A stretch of DNA of 64,000 bases, from positions 124,001 through 188,000 of the forward strand of contig CANGWB010000003.1 in the NCBI GenBank assembly GCA_947457465.1. The letters are read 5' to 3'. Below are positions 10,526 through 19,140 of this stretch, one piece after another. Under the pieces are notes generated by a model. That model searched no databases, had not been told where the DNA came from, and saw only the letters and a list, made by a program, of their open reading frames with translations. The DNA is from Chitinophagaceae bacterium. Lineage in GTDB: Bacteria > Bacteroidota > Bacteroidia > Chitinophagales > Chitinophagaceae. Position numbers and translations under genes: made by a program. Position 1 is the first letter of the stretch, and each line of letters opens with the position of its first letter.

Positions 10526-11356
10526 TCAGAGCTTCCAGTTATACTGAAAACTGAATTGAGTCAGGCTGCTTGATGTAGACCACTCTGGTCCACGAATCGG
10601 CCAGCAAATGCCGGCACGAACGTGAACAACGCGACTGACTTCAATACCCATTGCCAACGAAGCGCCTCCATACAATCCCCGGAACATCGGCAGCGAAAAC
10701 AACCACTTTAGTTGGTCCGGGGAAGAATAGCTCAGATGCCCACGCATCATGAGCCACCCTCGCCCCAGATTCTTTGGATTCGAACGCTCCCAAGCGCCGG
10801 TGTGCAGTACACAACCCACCACTGCATAATGATTCCATAATAGTTGCTGCCTCCCTGTTAGTGGATCGTTGAATGCCCCGATCCGGTATCCGCTTAACAT
10901 CCGCTCGCCGAACTGAAAAACAAATCGCAGCGCAGAGTGTGAACCCCATGCTGCACCCAATTTTTGTCCCTCAAACCCCATGTTCATCACCCCGCTCCAG
11001 GGCGAATACAGTTGCCAGGTGATCGATTCATTCGATCGTCCGCTCATCGCTATCCCAGCACCTGTATTCGAACCCGGCTGCGACACACCACTGTACAACG
11101 ATAAGGGCAACTGCCATTTACCTGGCTCACCTATCATCAATCGAACCACCCGTGCAGATGCTTGCATTTGTCCGCCTTGCCCCCACTCCATCATACCTGC
11201 ACTCAACCATTCAGGCGGTTCACTTAGTTTTCGAATGGCTGAATCACGCACCACAGCTGAAGGGATCGGTTTTACAGTTTGTGCCGCTGACCCTTGAAAA
11301 AGTGATAGGGTGATCACTGAAACAAGTAGGCTCAACGCTTTTTTACGAACCCGCAT
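10526..11356 (-). CDS. Exported protein of unknown function (third gene of a three-gene exported set)
   Basis: About 276 residues from the ATG at 11356 (MRVRKKALSLL), which gives a good signal peptide ending at GSAAQ; an upstream in-frame start at 11374 is less likely. No known domain. The mature protein is rich in Trp, Gly and aromatic-alternating strands (for example RFVFQFGERMLSGYRIG and WLMMRGHLSYSS) and ends in a strand FSFQYNWKL with a terminal Leu after Lys, as seen in outer-membrane barrels. I infer an outer-membrane or periplasmic beta protein. Its start lies 25 bases inside the preceding gene, so translation is probably coupled. It converges on gyrB with nine bases between the genes. 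Confidence 0.65.
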   Translation of the reverse strand: MRVRKKALSLLVSVITLSLFQGSAAQTVKPIPSAVVRDSAIRKLSEPPEWLSAGMMEWGQGGQMQASARVVRLMIGEPGKWQLPLSLYSGVSQPGSNTGAGIAMSGRSNESITWQLYSPWSGVMNMGFEGQKLGAAWGSHSALRFVFQFGERMLSGYRIGAFNDPLTGRQQLLWNHYAVVGCVLHTGAWERSNPKNLGRGWLMMRGHLSYSSPDQLKWLFSLPMFRGLYGGASLAMGIEVSRVVHVRAGICWPIRGPEWSTSSSLTQFSFQYNWKL

Positions 11357-12057
11357 AAAAATCCGACTGACCATTTTCGATTTATCATTTGACCGGCAGA
11401 AACAAGTAATGGATCATCCGGAACCGATTGAAAAGAAATACTCGACCGATCGCCGATGTCGAATTGAATCAATGGCTGTAAAAAACAAGACCAAGATTTA
11501 CGATCTAGAAGTTTACAAGACAGCCCTAACTGTGTTCGCCAATGAGGAATACCCATCGGATGCCGCTGCACACCCAATCGATATAAAATGAAAGTCCTTC
11601 GATCAGGTTGCGATTGCCCGGTTGTGGTGGACAAATAACTCCCATTATGAAATGAAAAGACTCCGCCGGTTCGCAAGACCCATTCCACTTTTCTGAATGA
11701 TGGTAACGGACGAATAATTGAGATAAAGGGGTATAGTTGTAATGCCTCCAACCGAAATGTCGGTACATGAACTTTGACCGGATAATAAGGAATGACTCTA
11801 TCTAACTCATAAAAAGGGGAGCGAAGTTGAAGTGTGGTAATTACACCGAATGAAAATCCAGACTTTCCGTTAGATGGTTTATGGTATGCCCCCAGCGACC
11901 AGTAACTATCTGGCACCGCTTTCAACCCGATTTGTCCAGACCGAATCACAGATGCCGGGGAGGAGCCAATGGCCCCTCCCCCCATCCAATGCACCTGCGC
12001 CTGCGCCGACATAAACAGTTGAAAACCGGTCAGGCCGAGTAAAATAAATGTCCGCAT
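11332..12057 (-). CDS. Exported protein of unknown function (second gene of set)
   Basis: 241 residues from ATG 12057 (MRTFILLGLTGF), with a signal peptide ending near SAQAQ. The A of this ATG is shared with the TAA stop of the preceding gene (TAATG), which fixes the start and indicates coupled translation. The mature part has alternating hydrophobic strands (SGFSFGVITTLQL, FRLEALQLYPFISII, KWSVGFLCGFVKKR), suggesting a small beta-barrel or other envelope beta protein. It resembles the downstream partner in general composition rather than in alignable motifs. No family recognised. Confidence 0.65.
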   Translation of the reverse strand: MRTFILLGLTGFQLFMSAQAQVHWMGGGAIGSSPASVIRSGQIGLKAVPDSYWSLGAYHKPSNGKSGFSFGVITTLQLRSPFYELDRVIPYYPVKVHVPTFRLEALQLYPFISIIRPLPSFRKVEWVLRTGGVFSFHNGSYLSTTTGQSQPDRRTFILYRLGVQRHPMGIPHWRTQLGLSCKLLDRKSWSCFLQPLIQFDIGDRSSISFQSVPDDPLLVSAGQMINRKWSVGFLCGFVKKR

Positions 12058-13295
12058 TAGAAACACCCTCCACTTCCCAGCAGATGCACCTGATCCACCA
12101 GCGTTCGGTTATAGAAAATCGGAAAATTGATGAACTCTGTATTGACCTGCTGAATCGATAATGCATACGGATGTCTTTCAGAAATTTTTGCCTTGCCACG
12201 ACGATGTACCCCGGCGAATTGAAAAGGTTGTCCGTTCGCCGGCCAGGGCTTATCATCACAAACGTTCCATTGTTTTGTACAATAGGCAATACCCACCGTC
12301 TGCGACTTATCCTTTACAAATCGATTGCGCTTACGTTTATACAAATTGGCTTTCCCCCAGATACGAGTACGCGTAGCCCGAAAATCCGCCAGCACCCCAC
12401 GCTGTCCAACCTGATAATAGATGCGACGCTCCACATCCGGACTCAGCTCCTGCATCAGATTCACATCACGGGTATCGCTTTTTATCCGAGAAGTGACAGA
12501 GGGACTACAATCTGAGAATGCCAATTCCTCCAACCAGCTCAGAATATCCTTGATCGCATCCCAATTATTCAAGATAAAAAGTATGATATCCTTGAACTTC
12601 GTCTTCGCCTCCACACCACCAGCCGCCGCTGATAACTGAATAGTGGATAATTGAGGTTCTGGTTTACGAAACTCGATCGACCAATCAGCACTCAACACAG
12701 ACCAATACATCTCTTCGCCAACCGGCAAGTCATTGAAAGGATGTGGTTCACTCCACTCCAGTCCCTGACGCTGCAACCAATCCTCCTCAGCTTTCAACTG
12801 TACCATCATCATCGATCGAAACCCGAGTGTTGATGCAAAATAGGTGGAAGCATAATGATCAGTCGGACGGATCGCCTCATCCTCCAGATAATTATCGAAT
12901 AATTCCTGGTACTGACCGAACGTCAATTCCTCTACACAAACACCTTCGGTCCAGGCAATACTCAACAAGGATTCGCGTAACTCGAAATACTGAGCATCAC
13001 AGGCCTCATCCAGATCACGCAACTGCATCGAAAGCTCTACCGTTGCACGCAGATCGTCGACCTGTAACGCATCACCCAACAGACGAACCTCATAGGAAGC
13101 GATCAACCGATCGACCGACTGACGGGTTTGTGTCAATTCTTCCAAGTACCGATCGCGCGCTACCTGCAGCTGCTTCTGTAAGAACTCATTCGATTGTAAG
13201 CAAAGTTGAAACCGCGACTGACGCTGCTCCAATGGCTGCGCCGACAAGACCGGAATCAAAAACGAAAGAAAGGAGAACATAATAATAATTTTCAT
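12057..13295 (-). CDS. Large exported helical protein of unknown function (first gene of set)
   Basis: 412 residues with a clear signal peptide (MKIIIMFSFLSFLIPVLSAQ). Residues 21-115 are predicted long helices rich in Gln, Glu, Arg and Leu, coiled-coil-like. A strongly hydrophobic amphipathic helix lies at 234-258 (FKDIILFILNNWDAIKDIL...), unusual for a soluble exported protein and suggesting membrane insertion or oligomerisation. The C-terminal third (280-412) is basic and strand-rich with Cys339, Cys346 and Cys411, the last in the final GSGGCF. No family recognised. It leads a three-gene set whose downstream members both overlap their predecessor. No exact promoter element was found in the 211 bases upstream. 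Confidence 0.7.
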   Translation of the reverse strand: MKIIIMFSFLSFLIPVLSAQPLEQRQSRFQLCLQSNEFLQKQLQVARDRYLEELTQTRQSVDRLIASYEVRLLGDALQVDDLRATVELSMQLRDLDEACDAQYFELRESLLSIAWTEGVCVEELTFGQYQELFDNYLEDEAIRPTDHYASTYFASTLGFRSMMMVQLKAEEDWLQRQGLEWSEPHPFNDLPVGEEMYWSVLSADWSIEFRKPEPQLSTIQLSAAAGGVEAKTKFKDIILFILNNWDAIKDILSWLEELAFSDCSPSVTSRIKSDTRDVNLMQELSPDVERRIYYQVGQRGVLADFRATRTRIWGKANLYKRKRNRFVKDKSQTVGIAYCTKQWNVCDDKPWPANGQPFQFAGVHRRGKAKISERHPYALSIQQVNTEFINFPIFYNRTLVDQVHLLGSGGCF

Positions 13296-13773: not shown

Positions 13774-16700
13774 CTAATATTGTTTTACTATTCGAAGAGT
13801 TGAAAATTGTCCACGTAGTTCAACCTGAACAGCATATACGCCACTAGCGATCGCTGGACTGGATAGATCCAACCAGAATGATTGCTCATACCCGGTTCCT
13901 GTAACCAGTTGCTCTCGCACCTGCCGACCCGACGCATCCAGGATCCGCATCCGCATCACCTCGCCAACATTGGCTTGGAAAACACCTTTGAATAACCCGG
14001 TTGAAGGATTCGGATAAAAACGTAAAACCGATTTTGCTTCATACACCATCGGTTGTGCCGCTGTATAAACATACCAGCCATCCCGATGCGTTATCTTGAT
14101 CCGGTAATACCAAACATCCGATTTACCTGCACTCAGATCATCGTACTGATAGGCGCGCGGCACGCCACCATTACCTGCTGAATTCAAGGTTGCCAGCGTT
14201 ACATATTGTTGCTGCTGCCAAGCCGTATTACCTTTTGCCACCTGAACCTCATGTGCCACCACATCGTACTCATAGGCAGTAGTCCAATTCAACCGAGCTG
14301 AATATGGTCCTAAGCGTTCCGATTGGTAAGCGGAAATGTCCACCGGCAAGCCCTGCATTCGGTTACGCCAGCCACTGTTTATCCAATACTCCGACCAATT
14401 TCGTACCGGAACCTCCATGTAATATCCATTCAAATAAGGAACTCTTCTGGCCTGATTACGCGTCAGAAATGACCACGTACCAATACCATTATCATTGAGT
14501 GAAAGGTTTTGAGTAGTGGATGCCTCATCGCTATAATGAGTGACGCCCAATTCTGCAACTGAATTGACCGGTTCACAAGTAGCACATCCGGTGGCAAATA
14601 CCAGCGAATCTGATTCCCTATCCAAGAAATACAAACGGAGTCGGGCCGTGTCGGTCAGCGGCGAGCCATTCAACACCCAGTTTCGATCCAAATAATACTG
14701 TCCATTCGTAAACCGATCCGAACCGGAATGAGAGAATGATTGAACGGATACTGTACCGGTTTGTCCGTGTGACTGCAACGCAGCCACCAACTGATTAGTA
14801 GCAATGACCGGCTGCCAATTGTTTGTGGCAGTATAATTCAATGTTAGGGGCGTAGTCAATGTCGGACCAGTATAGATCGGCAAACCATTATCATAAATAT
14901 GAATGTCATCCACAGCTAAACCCTCTCTGGGTAAAAATGAATCAGCCCGCAAGACAAACCGAAGCCGCATGGAAGGAATACCAGCAGGTAATGGAATAGT
15001 AGCCACATGCCAACGCGTATAGGTCTGAATACTCCATACCGGATTACCGGCATAGTTGCGATTGTACCAATTCACACCCTGGCCAACCGTGCCCAATCGA
15101 GTCCAGGTGATACCATCTGCCGAATACTCCATATAAGCACCATCACAGAATGCACCATTTCCGCAATCTTCCAGATCCAGCGCCACCATAAAACTCAGCA
15201 TCGGGGTACTGAGCCCGCTCAAGTTTAAACAGGGCGAGTACAAATACGAGAACTCACTATCGTTATACTGACCTTTCAATCTTGTTTTCCATGATTTAAA
15301 TCCACTACCAGTTCCTTTGATCCGGTTTGACGCCGGCACACCAAGCTCCCAACTGGGATTGACACCTCCTACATACCAATCAGAACCAGTTTCAAAATCC
15401 TGCACATAAGGGAAAGACGACACAACCGGCAACACGCGAATAGATGTCTGCGCCGTATCATTCGAACGATAAGAGTCATTCGCCAGATCGACCCAAACCG
15501 TCAACACCTCCGGTTGAGAGCCGTTCAAACTAAGAGCTTGTGTAAATGTGTAGGTCATAGTGGTGTTCGCCGGAATAGATGGGATCTGCTCCGATACGAT
15601 TGAACCATTGTTGAGACGCATGCGGATCGGCACATTAACTCTTGATTGACCCAAACTATTACGTACCGTTACTTTCACGGGAACAGCCTGTCCGGGTGCA
15701 CAAACCTGCGCAATGGGCTCATCGATCCGAACCAACTGCACATCCTCTCCTACAACATATAAACGAACATCATCGAATGAATAACCTGCTCCGCTCCAAT
15801 CATCCGCTGCCAGATATTGTCCCCACTGCCCCCAACGGATCTGAAAACTGCTGCTGAATTGTTGTCCGTTCGCGGCAAGTAGATCAGAAATTTCTATGCC
15901 ACTAACAGATCGATACACACCCAGCGGTGCCTGGTTCGCAAAGAGATCATAAGCCAAGATCCAGGGTGCCGCATCATCCCCACGGATCCATACTCGATTG
16001 TTCGTATTCGATAATTGATCGTGGTGCTTATAACGAAAGTCTAGCCGCACTTCATCCGTCAAGGCATAGTTGGATAAATTAAAAGTGCCGATCAGATAAT
16101 TCGTATTTCCACCACCGACCGGTAAACGAACATCCATCGTCAGCGCCCGGTCGCCGGAATAAGACATACCACTGTTGATGAACGTACGCAAACGACCCTG
16201 GCTATTCAGAAATGAAAAGTCATATCGATCCGAACCGATCAATCCCATTTGCGACTGAAGAACTTCCTGTTTGGGAAGCGCATCGAAATTATCCACCCAA
16301 GCAGGACTCAGCACCAGGGGAGCATTACTTAACTGACGAACCGTTTGCGTCAATTCGTTATTGGACGCTACCGGATCACCCGAACGGATCACGGCTGTTC
16401 GGATCACATACGTGCCCACGGCAGATAGATCCGCCGGCGTCGAGAAATTATAAACCAAGGTTGCACCGGCTGCCAAATTTGTAAGTGGCAGATTTTCAGA
16501 AACGATCGGGCCGCCGTTGATCTGATATGTAATTACAGATGGACCGGTAAAGGCCGCATCATCCAGATTCTTGATCCGAACCGAAATGGTTTGGTTAGAT
16601 GGTAATACAACAGATGTATTCAGTCGACCCGACGCAGCCGGACTGATCAATGCATCCATTCGCAGATCATTATCGGAGATAGAACCTGCACACGTACCGC

Positions 16701-19140
16701 TATTCGGCTGACGGGAAATTGAAGTCGAACGGCGACCCGCCTTGCCATTCAGACGAGGCCGTACGCCCACCCAGTAAATAGAATCACGTGATAACCCTGT
16801 AAACAAATAAGTAGTGGTTGTAGCAGGAACAATAGCTATCGATTGCATTTCCGTGCCAATCAACCGCATCACCTCATAATCCGTTGCACCCGAAACAGCT
16901 GTCCAGTTCAACGAGATATATGTCTCACATTGCGCGGGAGCCAAGGAAGCAACCGGTAATCCGATCATCAGGAAAGACTGAGAAGAGGAGATGGCTCCAT
17001 TCGCCCGACTGATTAAACGAACCCGTACCTGATCGGACGTAATATTCGGTGTAATCCAGCTGTGTTGGTCTGTTGTAGCTGCCAACCCATTCACGATGGT
17101 GATCCAACTCGCGCCATTATCGGTAGAATATTCTAGGTTGTATCCTCCAGAAGCGGCAACAGACTCCCATTGAATATTGATGGCTTGCCCGGGACGAAAA
17201 GATTCGTTACCCATCGGAAAAACCAATTTGGCAACAGCCGGCATCTGATCCCAACTGATAAAATAGGATTGCGTTACTGTGTTCACTGAAGTCCCTCGAA
17301 TCCGTATGGTATAATTTCCAGCCACCGGATTATACAAGGTGATCTGCTCAATGTTATTGATGCGATCAACTCCCACACCCGCCACCTGATTCACCCGAGC
17401 AGCGGTTGTATCGAGGATGCGTGGAAGAAGAATGGTACCATTGGGAGTTACTAACTCCAGATCCAGATCATTGACCAACGCTCGAGAGGTAACCATAGAG
17501 GCCGCCGGATCGTTCCAATTCAGCATTACTTTCAAGACGGACTGACCCGCAGGCACAGCGATACTTCTCAGAGCAAATCCACCATGTATCACAGAACCGA
17601 AGGCAAATCGATTATTTTCCAACATATCAAGCGAACGATCGAGATTCATCCACCCGAATCCAAATGTGTAATCCGGTCCCTCATTTCCTTTATCGGTGGC
17701 CCCATTACAAAGCAGATTCTTCACCAATGCGTTGATCGGATTCGCTCCGTTGTTTAGTTGTCGATACCGCTGAATCAACAATGCGGCGCCACCGGTTACG
17801 GCAGGAGCTGACATGCTGGTTCCGTTGTTTGTGTAATAGCTTCCGAAGCCAGTGGATACAACGGAGGCTCCTTGGGCGGTGATCTCAGGCTTTATCCGAC
17901 CATCGATGACAGGACCGCGGCTAGAGAAGCTGGCGATCAGTCCATTGAATTGTGTAGCGCCAACAGTCAATACATTTTTTGCCGATTGATAACTTCCTAG
18001 TACGGTCTTGAACCCCGTCGCATACGGAGGACAAGTGAGTGCCCCACTATTACCGGCTGCATATACATGCAACAACTCCGGCAGATCGAATGCCTGCTGA
18101 TCCCATGTTTTTGAGTAAAAATCATACAGCCCGTTATAGCCACACTCATTCACAATGGCGCCGTATGAATTATTGGTAAGCACCATGCCCTCATCCCGGA
18201 CGTACTGGGGTGCCATATCAAAAATATGGTTGAAGTATTGTGAGATCAGTCGAGCACGAGGCACATAACCGACCAAGGTATCCGATAGAATTCCTCCTCC
18301 TGCAACCGTGCCGGATACATGTACCCCATGCTGACCGGTACCATAAGCAAAACGACTTATCACTCTTCCCGTGAAATCCACATGCAGCAAGGGATCTCCA
18401 TTATCTCCCATACCGATCACCAATCCTTCGCCCAGCAATCCGCGGCCACCTTGACTCAACGGTGCATTGGCCAGATTGGCTCGGGAACCCATGCGGCTTA
18501 AAAAATTGATCTCCTGATCCGGTGCCGGTACAGCCTGTACATATTCCACATACGGAAGAGATGCCAATCCATTCAAGCGAGCCGTATCCAAGGAAACCTC
18601 GACGATATGTTGTTTGGCAAAACGAGCATTACGAATCTCAAAACCAGACACATTCAATAATGATTGAAGCTGTGGCAGATCGAGAGAGGCGCTGAATTGA
18701 ATCCAGACATCGATCATTCCACCTGTACGAGTCGACCAAGGAGGATATTTTTTAGAGAACAATTCAGGGGATAATTTCTCTGAAGGCTCCAACATAAATG
18801 CTGAACGCACTCCGACTGATTTCAACTTCTCCCATCCAGGCTTTCCAGTGATCGAAGCCCGAAACGAAAATGCATCTACATATTCATCTAATACAATACC
18901 TAACGCAACCAACTCCTTGATGTGCGTGGCATTGGGAGTCGATTCAAATTGAAGTAAACAGATCCGCTTACCCAGCACCAGTGGCTGCTGATCCAGAAAA
19001 CGAGGCCATTGAATAGCATCAATATTCGGTACAGGCGCCTTCAGGCCGCTTCTGATTTTTAAAGAATACGGAGAAGACATTTGGGCCTCTGCGAGCATCA
19101 GCCCCAGCAGGGCGAACGATAACAAGAAGAACTTTTTCAT
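13774..19140 (-). CDS. Secreted S8 subtilase with T9SS C-terminal sorting domain
   Basis: 1788-residue extracellular serine protease. A signal peptide (1-19, ending AEA) precedes an N-terminal prodomain-like region (20-230). The subtilase domain (about 235-530) has the triad Asp246 in MGDNG, His271 in GQHGVHVSGT and Ser442 in NGTSMSAP, with oxyanion Asn364 in AAGNSG, so it looks active. Beyond it come Ig/FN3-like and CARDB-like beta domains and two jelly-roll, MAM-like segments (for example LDFRYKHHDQ and SFDDVRLYVV). The last 85 residues are a type A T9SS sorting domain beginning FYPNPSTG and ending FSTLRIVKQY. The protein would be exported by the GldKLMN system. No exact promoter upstream of its ATG; the terminator at 13725-13760 closes it. 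Confidence 0.93.
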   Translation of the reverse strand: MKKFFLLSFALLGLMLAEAQMSSPYSLKIRSGLKAPVPNIDAIQWPRFLDQQPLVLGKRICLLQFESTPNATHIKELVALGIVLDEYVDAFSFRASITGKPGWEKLKSVGVRSAFMLEPSEKLSPELFSKKYPPWSTRTGGMIDVWIQFSASLDLPQLQSLLNVSGFEIRNARFAKQHIVEVSLDTARLNGLASLPYVEYVQAVPAPDQEINFLSRMGSRANLANAPLSQGGRGLLGEGLVIGMGDNGDPLLHVDFTGRVISRFAYGTGQHGVHVSGTVAGGGILSDTLVGYVPRARLISQYFNHIFDMAPQYVRDEGMVLTNNSYGAIVNECGYNGLYDFYSKTWDQQAFDLPELLHVYAAGNSGALTCPPYATGFKTVLGSYQSAKNVLTVGATQFNGLIASFSSRGPVIDGRIKPEITAQGASVVSTGFGSYYTNNGTSMSAPAVTGGAALLIQRYRQLNNGANPINALVKNLLCNGATDKGNEGPDYTFGFGWMNLDRSLDMLENNRFAFGSVIHGGFALRSIAVPAGQSVLKVMLNWNDPAASMVTSRALVNDLDLELVTPNGTILLPRILDTTAARVNQVAGVGVDRINNIEQITLYNPVAGNYTIRIRGTSVNTVTQSYFISWDQMPAVAKLVFPMGNESFRPGQAINIQWESVAASGGYNLEYSTDNGASWITIVNGLAATTDQHSWITPNITSDQVRVRLISRANGAISSSQSFLMIGLPVASLAPAQCETYISLNWTAVSGATDYEVMRLIGTEMQSIAIVPATTTTYLFTGLSRDSIYWVGVRPRLNGKAGRRSTSISRQPNSGTCAGSISDNDLRMDALISPAASGRLNTSVVLPSNQTISVRIKNLDDAAFTGPSVITYQINGGPIVSENLPLTNLAAGATLVYNFSTPADLSAVGTYVIRTAVIRSGDPVASNNELTQTVRQLSNAPLVLSPAWVDNFDALPKQEVLQSQMGLIGSDRYDFSFLNSQGRLRTFINSGMSYSGDRALTMDVRLPVGGGNTNYLIGTFNLSNYALTDEVRLDFRYKHHDQLSNTNNRVWIRGDDAAPWILAYDLFANQAPLGVYRSVSGIEISDLLAANGQQFSSSFQIRWGQWGQYLAADDWSGAGYSFDDVRLYVVGEDVQLVRIDEPIAQVCAPGQAVPVKVTVRNSLGQSRVNVPIRMRLNNGSIVSEQIPSIPANTTMTYTFTQALSLNGSQPEVLTVWVDLANDSYRSNDTAQTSIRVLPVVSSFPYVQDFETGSDWYVGGVNPSWELGVPASNRIKGTGSGFKSWKTRLKGQYNDSEFSYLYSPCLNLSGLSTPMLSFMVALDLEDCGNGAFCDGAYMEYSADGITWTRLGTVGQGVNWYNRNYAGNPVWSIQTYTRWHVATIPLPAGIPSMRLRFVLRADSFLPREGLAVDDIHIYDNGLPIYTGPTLTTPLTLNYTATNNWQPVIATNQLVAALQSHGQTGTVSVQSFSHSGSDRFTNGQYYLDRNWVLNGSPLTDTARLRLYFLDRESDSLVFATGCATCEPVNSVAELGVTHYSDEASTTQNLSLNDNGIGTWSFLTRNQARRVPYLNGYYMEVPVRNWSEYWINSGWRNRMQGLPVDISAYQSERLGPYSARLNWTTAYEYDVVAHEVQVAKGNTAWQQQQYVTLATLNSAGNGGVPRAYQYDDLSAGKSDVWYYRIKITHRDGWYVYTAAQPMVYEAKSVLRFYPNPSTGLFKGVFQANVGEVMRMRILDASGRQVREQLVTGTGYEQSFWLDLSSPAIASGVYAVQVELRGQFSTLRIVKQY

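What the first reader, a model, noticed from the sequence alone, without database searches (positions are those of the whole stretch)
10526..13295. Three overlapping genes for unrecognised exported proteins
The three frames overlap in series (TAATG between the first and second; about 25 bases between the second and third), all have signal peptides, none matches a family I know. The first has an N-terminal coiled-coil part, a hydrophobic helix at 234-258 and a Cys-bearing C-terminus; the other two look like envelope beta proteins. Such tight coupling suggests a stoichiometric envelope complex. The hydrophobic helix in an exported helical protein hints at membrane insertion, so a pore-forming or surface-assembly system is possible (inference).
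Basis: partly seen in the sequence, partly recalled or inferred. Interest (0 to 1): 0.55.

Follow-up and report, generated by a model that had tools for sequence, protein, structure and literature searches.

The report
Exported cargo with its envelope partner
These three genes are real and belong to a little-known envelope locus of environmental bacteria in which one conserved outer-membrane-type protein is paired with an exported, cysteine-bearing cargo protein that is swapped for other cargos in relatives, some of which look like secreted toxins; what the cargo does is untested.

Summary
The three overlapping genes exist as described and match no Pfam, NCBIfam, PHROG, PADLOC or PDB sequence family beyond chance. 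They are not a fixed trio. Among 42 genomes held of the genus, the first gene (P1) is in 16 and never without the third (P3). The second (P2) is detected in 10 of those 16, has an in-frame stop in two, and evolves fastest. In five of six other relatives a terminator-like hairpin follows P1, which argues against 1:1:1 stoichiometry. P3 also occurs without P1. I examined 20 P3 loci outside the small-genome site (one of them with P1): 17 have an upstream gene, and the nearest of 150 aa or more is called exported in 17 of 17. These cargos fall into about 13 kinds, some Cys-rich at the C-terminus, some with a small membrane protein or a divergent two-component system nearby. P1 is best read as exported cargo and P3 as its constant envelope partner (anchor, release or self-protection factor) in a modular, possibly antagonistic locus. 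The 234-258 helix is amphipathic, not transmembrane. P3 shows no PorP/SprF similarity. Structure prediction helped only for P1's helical N-terminus. Function, contact and location are inferred.

The parts
12057..13295 (-). P1, exported cargo-like protein, 412 aa, 7 Cys (6 conserved in the family)
   Evidence: dN/dS 0.05 vs L002
12825..13232 (-). P1 residues 22-157: helical N-terminal region (helical hairpin in the model)
   Evidence: AlphaFold2 on 4 rows; block pLDDT 72-93 except 45-53 near residues 71-90 and 56 after 150; alpha moment z 3.1 for residues 21-216
12522..12596 (-). P1 residues 234-258: conserved amphipathic helix, not a transmembrane segment
   Evidence: best KD mean over 19 residues 1.15; alignment
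12060..12518 (-). P1 residues 260-412: basic C-terminal domain with 4 invariant Cys and an invariant His-Pro; the most conserved part of P1
   Evidence: dN/dS 0.02-0.07 in the pairs where it could be computed, against 0.013-0.029 for gyrB
12055..12059 (-). TAATG stop/start overlap of P1 and P2
11332..12057 (-). P2, exported beta-type protein, 241 aa; accessory, fast-evolving, missing or broken in half of the P1 genomes
   Evidence: beta moment z 2.7
11332..11356 (-). 25-nt overlap of the P2 end and the P3 start
10526..11356 (-). P3, exported envelope (outer-membrane-type) protein, 276 aa; the constant partner
   Evidence: outer-membrane nature inferred, beta moment z only 1.7

Best explanation
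P1 is the exported cargo, and P3 its dedicated outer-membrane-type partner, of a modular envelope locus in which P3 is the constant part and the cargo is exchanged between lineages. P1 goes through Sec, forms up to three disulfides in the periplasm, and acts at or outside the cell surface; P3 anchors it, releases it, or protects the producer from it. P2 is an accessory envelope protein. In the larger genomes, with changing, often Cys-rich cargos, small membrane proteins and a divergent two-component system, the locus most likely serves regulated antagonism or another surface effector function. In the small-genome relatives one cargo (P1) is fixed between mfd and gyrB without those extra genes. 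Shown: gene order, co-occurrence, different cargos beside closely related P3, selection. Inferred: P3 as an outer-membrane barrel, P1-P3 contact, disulfides, and the effector role.
For: P1 never occurs without P3: 16 of 16 P1 genomes among 42 (Fisher p 5e-6, which ignores shared ancestry). P3 without P1 in 8 of 42 genomes of the genus and in other genera. Of 20 P3 loci outside the small-genome site, 17 have a same-strand gene within 450 nt upstream; the nearest such gene of 150 aa or more is called exported in 17 of 17, against 35% of 147 background ORFs; in 9 of 17 the upstream block (up to 5 genes) holds a protein that is exported and has 3 or more Cys in its last 80 residues, against 2 of 147 single ORFs. 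7 of 17 have a 47-108 aa hydrophobic protein. P3 of L024, L042 and L035 is 78-86% identical while their cargos do not align or align only weakly. A divergent membrane protein, HK and RR set in 4 loci; a fifth (L053) has HK and RR matched and the membrane protein by inspection only; RR alone in 2. P1 residues 260-412 are under strong purifying selection.
Against: No experiment or reliable model shows P1-P3 contact; the P3 model is uninformative (pLDDT 32) and P3's beta-periodicity is weak (z 1.7 against 4.7 for PorP). 3 of 20 P3 loci have no upstream partner (L055, L066, L069), and in L066 the linked gene is downstream and shows no signal peptide by eye. The loci are not independent: collapsed by kind, 6 of 13 are exported and Cys-rich. 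The home-made export rule% of the background exported. Some cargo pairs that I treat as unrelated have weak BLAST matches (L039 vs P1 E 0.018, L054 vs a P1 E 0.017, in a set of 21 proteins). Conservation of P1 and its retention in small genomes fit a housekeeping surface role at least as well as antagonism, and the small-genome loci lack the small membrane protein and the two-component system.
Confidence: 0.5

Rival explanations
1. Antagonism proper: P1 is a Sec-exported antibacterial protein with a helical pro- or chaperone part and an active C-terminal domain, and P3 (with or without P2) is its self-protection factor or altered receptor.
For: Cargos in sister loci end in Cys-rich hydrophobic or Gly-rich stretches that look like bacteriocins by eye (L036, L037, L038, L039, L043), some with small membrane proteins that look like immunity proteins; L067 holds an exported papain-family protein over Pfam's cut-off (a near copy in L068 by eye) and L066 an HExxH protein with a sub-threshold Peptidase_M91 match; the fast P2 (dN/dS 0.25) would suit an arms race; BcpT, an exported toxin whose C-terminal fragment is thought to act, is a precedent in the phylum (PMC9308784: abstract, one section and passages read).
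Against: None of the cargos searched matches a bacteriocin family; P1's C-terminal domain is under strong purifying selection; P1 sits at one conserved site in small genomes; no small membrane protein lies beside P1 there.
Confidence: 0.25
2. A structural envelope complex or adhesin of P1, P2 and P3 with fixed stoichiometry.
For: Overlapping starts in the window clade and a possible P1/P3 overlap in 5 of 5 P2-less relatives; conservation of P1 and P3.
Against: P2 not detected or broken in 8 of 16; hairpin with T-rich tail between P1 and the next gene in 5 of 6 other relatives; P3 used with other cargos.
Confidence: 0.1
3. The cargo is a signal or adhesion protein read by the divergent two-component system.
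For: Divergent HK and RR genes beside five cargo loci.
Against: No match to these HK and RR in the four small-genome P1 loci tested, nor in 9 others of the 23 loci tested; some of these regions hold several HK/RR copies, so they may simply be rich in them.
Confidence: 0.1
4. A type IX secretion cargo with a PorP/SprF-like shuttle.
For: Same logic of cargo plus adjacent outer-membrane partner; the genome has 7 PorP/SprF matches over the cut-off (one with an internal stop) and a type A sorting domain on the neighbouring protease.
Against: No sorting-domain model is listed for P1 up to E 1; the P3 profile aligns with PorP only over 25 columns of signal peptide.
Confidence: 0.05

Closest known systems
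T9SS type B CTD cargo with PorP/SprF shuttle (SprB-SprF, PG1035-PorP; PMC9143113: abstract, outline and passages; PMC12618676: abstract and outline)
   Same: Exported cargo, often genetically linked to a dedicated outer-membrane partner; several cargo-partner pairs
   Different: P1 has no detected C-terminal sorting domain and P3 no detected PorP/SprF similarity
BcpT-BcpI of Phocaeicola (PMC9308784: abstract, outline, section on activation, passages)
   Same: Exported proprotein whose C-terminal part is thought to be the active one, with a small linked immunity protein
   Different: BcpT is an SpII lipoprotein on a plasmid with a 57-aa lipoprotein partner; P1 lies beside gyrB, has no lipobox Cys, and its partner is a 276-aa protein; BcpT and P1 were not compared by sequence here
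BSAP pore-forming toxins (PMC12853789: abstract, start of the introduction, outline)
   Same: Exported proteins of Bacteroidota that act together with outer-membrane proteins (their receptors)
   Different: BSAPs are surface lipoproteins with a MACPF domain; P1 has neither
Bacteroidetocins (PMC6671954: passages)
   Same: Their small Cys-bearing end products resemble the C-termini of some sister cargos by eye
   Different: Bacteroidetocins have 15-16 aa leaders ending in GG and an ABC transporter with a peptidase domain; these cargos have Sec-like signal peptides and about 185-440 aa

Membership tests
T9SS type B cargo + PorP/SprF | C-terminal sorting domain on the cargo | tested here: not met
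   No sorting-domain model listed for P1 up to E 1 in NCBIfam
T9SS type B cargo + PorP/SprF | Partner belongs to PF11751 | tested here: not met
   No Pfam match for P3; P3 profile vs five own-genome PorP proteins aligns 25 columns of signal peptide only
T9SS type B cargo + PorP/SprF | Host has T9SS | tested here: inconclusive
   Indirect markers only: 7 PF11751 matches over cut-off and a type A sorting domain next door; the core machine was not searched for
BSAP (MACPF) toxins | MACPF domain | tested here: not met
   Pfam search of P1 lists only a chance match at E 0.17
BSAP (MACPF) toxins | Lipoprotein signal (SpII) | tested here: not met
   No Cys at the end of the signal peptide of P1 (by eye)
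Secreted antibacterial protein (functional class) | Kills or inhibits competitors | not testable with these tools
   needs an assay
Class II-type bacteriocin with GG leader | GG leader and peptidase-ABC transporter | not tested
   Cargos have Sec-like signal peptides; transporters were not searched for
Outer-membrane beta-barrel | Barrel fold of P3 | tested here: inconclusive
   AF2 pLDDT 32; beta moment z 1.7 for P3, 2.7 for P2, 4.7 for the PorP control
P3 family (defined here) | Match to the P3 profile | tested here: met
   a distant member, L067, at hhalign probability 99.5 and E 2e-22

The most novel reading that the evidence does not exclude
P3 defines an undescribed class of outer-membrane delivery or self-protection protein of Chitinophagaceae and near relatives that works with interchangeable, Sec-exported, disulfide-rich antibacterial effectors through a route outside the known Bacteroidota systems (T9SS sorting domains, T6SS, surface lipoproteins, GG-leader bacteriocins), and small-genome members have domesticated one such effector, P1, as a constitutive surface protein.
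Probability: 0.25. Interest if true: 0.78.

Novelty: new variant of a known kind. Interest (0 to 1): 0.52.

Why it matters
If P3 is a constant partner for interchangeable exported effectors, P3 becomes a marker for finding unannotated exported proteins, often Cys-rich and possibly antibacterial, in this part of the Bacteroidota, and P1 plus P3 a simple two-gene system for testing how such a protein reaches the surface without a known sorting signal. That 15 of 17 genomes of 2.1 Mb or less in the genus keep P1, always with P3, suggests that the pair matters to these bacteria.

Tried and rejected
Family libraries: Pfam, NCBIfam, PHROGs and PADLOC for the three proteins gave at most weak matches far below any cut-off (the best, E 0.0064, is P1's helical N-terminus against ATP synthase subunit B). 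Profiles of P1 and P3 against PDB sequences gave 0 and 8 matches, all at E 0.2 or worse. AlphaFold2: P1 reliable only in its helical N-terminus (mean pLDDT 44); P3 useless (32). Foldseek of the P1 model: 0 matches at E 0.001 or better. Pore-forming helix: rejected on hydrophobicity. PorP/SprF membership of P3: rejected. Mobile origin: no P3 relative confirmed in viral contigs (13 stretches matched a pattern) or found in plasmids (one P3 sequence as query). P2 vs the other barrel-like family c12: weak (E 0.0018, probability 15), not claimed. Promoter and terminator consensus scans found no more than shuffles did; no TAnnTTTG box (consensus recalled) lies in the 481 nt upstream of P1. Literature: in seven searches I saw no listing whose title or shown abstract start describes this locus; most subscription papers are not held, so this is weak evidence of novelty.

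Limits of the counts: the genome search scores only part of its first-look candidates (at most 6 per genome, 9), so absences are not proven; several genomes are incomplete; the family, order and class samples overlap; background ORFs come from the same neighbourhoods; the Fisher values ignore shared ancestry. The export call is a home-made rule that also labels some small membrane proteins. Many dS values beyond the L002 pair exceed 1.5 or could not be computed, so dN/dS there is rough. Gene names mfd, gyrB and homogentisate dioxygenase are by eye. The grouping into 13 cargo kinds is mine; L044, L068 and L070 were not in the BLAST set. That the bacteria live in freshwater is only a guess from MAG names. 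On checking, I softened two statements: P1's C-terminal dN/dS is 1.5 to 3 times that of gyrB in the pairs where both could be computed, and the T9SS row is now inconclusive; the odds did not need changing.

Full report
What is there. Three minus-strand genes lie between a 1788-aa protein with a T9SS type A sorting domain and gyrB (name by eye): P1 12057-13295 (412 aa), P2 11332-12057 (241 aa) and P3 10526-11356 (276 aa; the longer start at 11374 is less likely because L003 and L004 have no earlier start in that frame). P1 and P2 share TAATG, P2 and P3 overlap by 25 nt. All three begin with a clear Sec-type signal peptide by eye. Window vs L002 dN/dS is 0.05, 0.25 and 0.11; P1 residues 260-412 give 0.02 in that pair (no gyrB there to compare), and 0.036, 0.068 and 0.038 in three wider pairs where gyrB gives 0.024, 0.022 and 0.013 (dS is near or above saturation in these).

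No known family. Pfam, NCBIfam, PHROGs and PADLOC give nothing near a cut-off, PDB sequences likewise.

Distribution. With a P1 profile, 16 of 42 genomes of the genus match. Only this genus matched in wider samples: 2 of 195 family genomes with the single protein, 3 of 396 order genomes with a 4-row profile, 2 of 191 family genomes with a 15-row profile, each count including the window's own genome. Of genomes of 2.1 Mb or less 15 of 17 have P1, of larger ones 1 of 25 (G539). P3 is in 24 of 42: all 16 with P1, and 8 without. P2 is detected in 10 of 16 P1 genomes (8; G517 and G528). It has an in-frame TGA in G155/L004 and an in-frame TAA near the start in G528/L027, and is not seen in the other 6. 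Where the contig reaches, the small-genome locus has mfd on one side (13 of 13 genomes) and gyrB on the other (13 of 13). So the core is P1 plus P3, and P2 is an accessory.

Coupling is not uniform. In the window's clade the starts overlap. In the five P2-less relatives L028-L032 an ATG of P3 lies 10 nt upstream of the P1 end. In five of the six remaining loci (L023, L024, L025, L026, L033) a stable hairpin with a T-rich tail follows P1 (z -6.5, -5.5, -6.0, -2.5, -4.6; the tail is weakest in L024), but not in L027 (+0.35). This looks like a terminator that would let P1 be made in excess, the opposite of a 1:1:1 complex. It is sequence evidence only; the consensus scan of L025 did not list it, its loop limit being 8.

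P1 anatomy. Helical N-terminal part (AlphaFold2 on 4 rows; reliable over about residues 21-70 and 91-150), a conserved amphipathic helix at 234-258 that is too polar for a membrane helix, and a basic C-terminal domain with four invariant Cys. In G515 (L035) a 437-aa exported protein upstream of P3 has a possibly related C-terminus (hhalign E 3.6e-4 but probability only 37; BLAST E 0.001-0.017 in a set of 21 proteins). It was a row of the profile that found it again, so that match proves nothing. With that profile 17 of 102 relatives match, all in the genus.

P3 as constant partner. P3 profiles matched 6 of 191 family genomes (5 of 101 genera) and 10 of 396 order genomes (5 of 165 genera), but only the own genus among 395 class genomes (2 of 395). 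I looked at 20 P3 loci outside the small-genome site (fetched); one of them, L024 from G539, has P1. In 17 there is a same-strand gene within 450 nt upstream, and the nearest such gene of 150 aa or more is called exported in 17 of 17 (background 35% of 147 ORFs of that size). In 9 of 17 the upstream block holds a protein that is exported and has at least 3 Cys in its last 80 residues (background 2 of 147 single ORFs; the block has up to 5 genes, so the comparison flatters it). L055, L066 and L069 have no such upstream gene. By my own grouping the 17 reduce to about 13 kinds: P1, the L035 type, a four-member family (L037, L038, L041, L044), a papain-like pair (L067, Peptidase_C1 over cut-off, and its near copy in L068) and single ones (L036, L039, L040, L042, L043, L052, L053, L054, L070). 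Of these 13, six are exported and Cys-rich. BLAST among 21 of these proteins shows weak matches of L039 and of L054 to P1 proteins (E 0.018, 0.017), so a shared N-terminal part cannot be excluded. 7 of 17 have a 47-108 aa hydrophobic protein between cargo and P3. L024, L035 and L042 have P3 proteins 78-86% identical, but their cargos are P1, the P1-like protein and a 265-aa protein without a match to either. In the P3 tree G539's P3 groups with G515's (SH-aLRT 96) and then G542's (88), away from the P3 of the small-genome P1 loci (quick tree with long branches and open forks). I read this as cargo exchange at a conserved partner.

Regulators. A divergent set of a membrane protein, histidine kinase and LuxR-type response regulator lies upstream of the cargo in L036, L040, L043 and L052; L053 has HK and RR matched and a membrane protein seen by inspection only; a response regulator alone lies there in L024 and L042. 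The four small-genome P1 loci tested (L025, L026, L028, L031) have no match.

How it may work. The gene logic, an exported cargo plus a constant envelope partner, is that of T9SS type B cargo with PorP/SprF (PMC9143113, PMC12618676), but P1 lacks a sorting-domain match and P3 shows no PorP similarity, although the genome carries PorP/SprF genes and a type A sorting domain. The cargo side recalls antagonistic systems: small membrane proteins that could be immunity proteins and bacteriocin-like C-termini by eye, with BcpT-BcpI as a precedent for an exported proprotein with a small immunity protein (PMC9308784). None of the cargos searched matches a bacteriocin family. Against a toxin reading of P1 itself stand its conservation, its fixed site and the missing small membrane protein. 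I therefore commit to cargo plus dedicated partner (0.5), with antagonism proper as the first rival (0.25). Physical contact, disulfides, location and function are all inferred.

Verdict. The interesting part lies outside the given coordinates: P3's changing cargos.

Noticed in passing
window 13777-19140 (-): 1788-aa subtilase-like protein with a T9SS type A sorting domain over the NCBIfam cut-off (TIGR04183); it appears beside P1 in 7 loci, which come from 5 genomes of the window's close clade.
   Followed up: partly
L004:9557-9559 (same genome as L034): In-frame TGA in the P2 gene of one MAG (G155) in an otherwise open frame; a real nonsense change or an assembly error.
   Followed up: partly
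L024:4416-6162, L035:1734-2573, L038:6112-7281: Another exported beta-type protein family (c12), sometimes in tandem, next to P3; in L038 it is split over several frames.
   Followed up: partly
L066:4706-6321: Next to a distant P3: an LpxR-like outer-membrane protein (Pfam E 7e-25) and a 150-aa HExxH protein with sub-threshold Peptidase_M91 and SprT-like matches.
   Followed up: no
L054:1118-1372: 85-aa ORF with 10 Cys and a CxxHDxxC motif reminiscent of phospholipase A2 (motif recalled), between an exported protein and a small membrane protein upstream of P3; no Pfam match.
   Followed up: no
L042 and L043 (G542); L041 and L044 (G540): Two P3 loci in one genome: in G542 with different cargos, in G540 with related cargos.
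   Followed up: partly
L037, L038, L041, L044: Cargo family c20 lies beside a homogentisate dioxygenase-like gene (name by eye, not searched) in all four loci.
   Followed up: no
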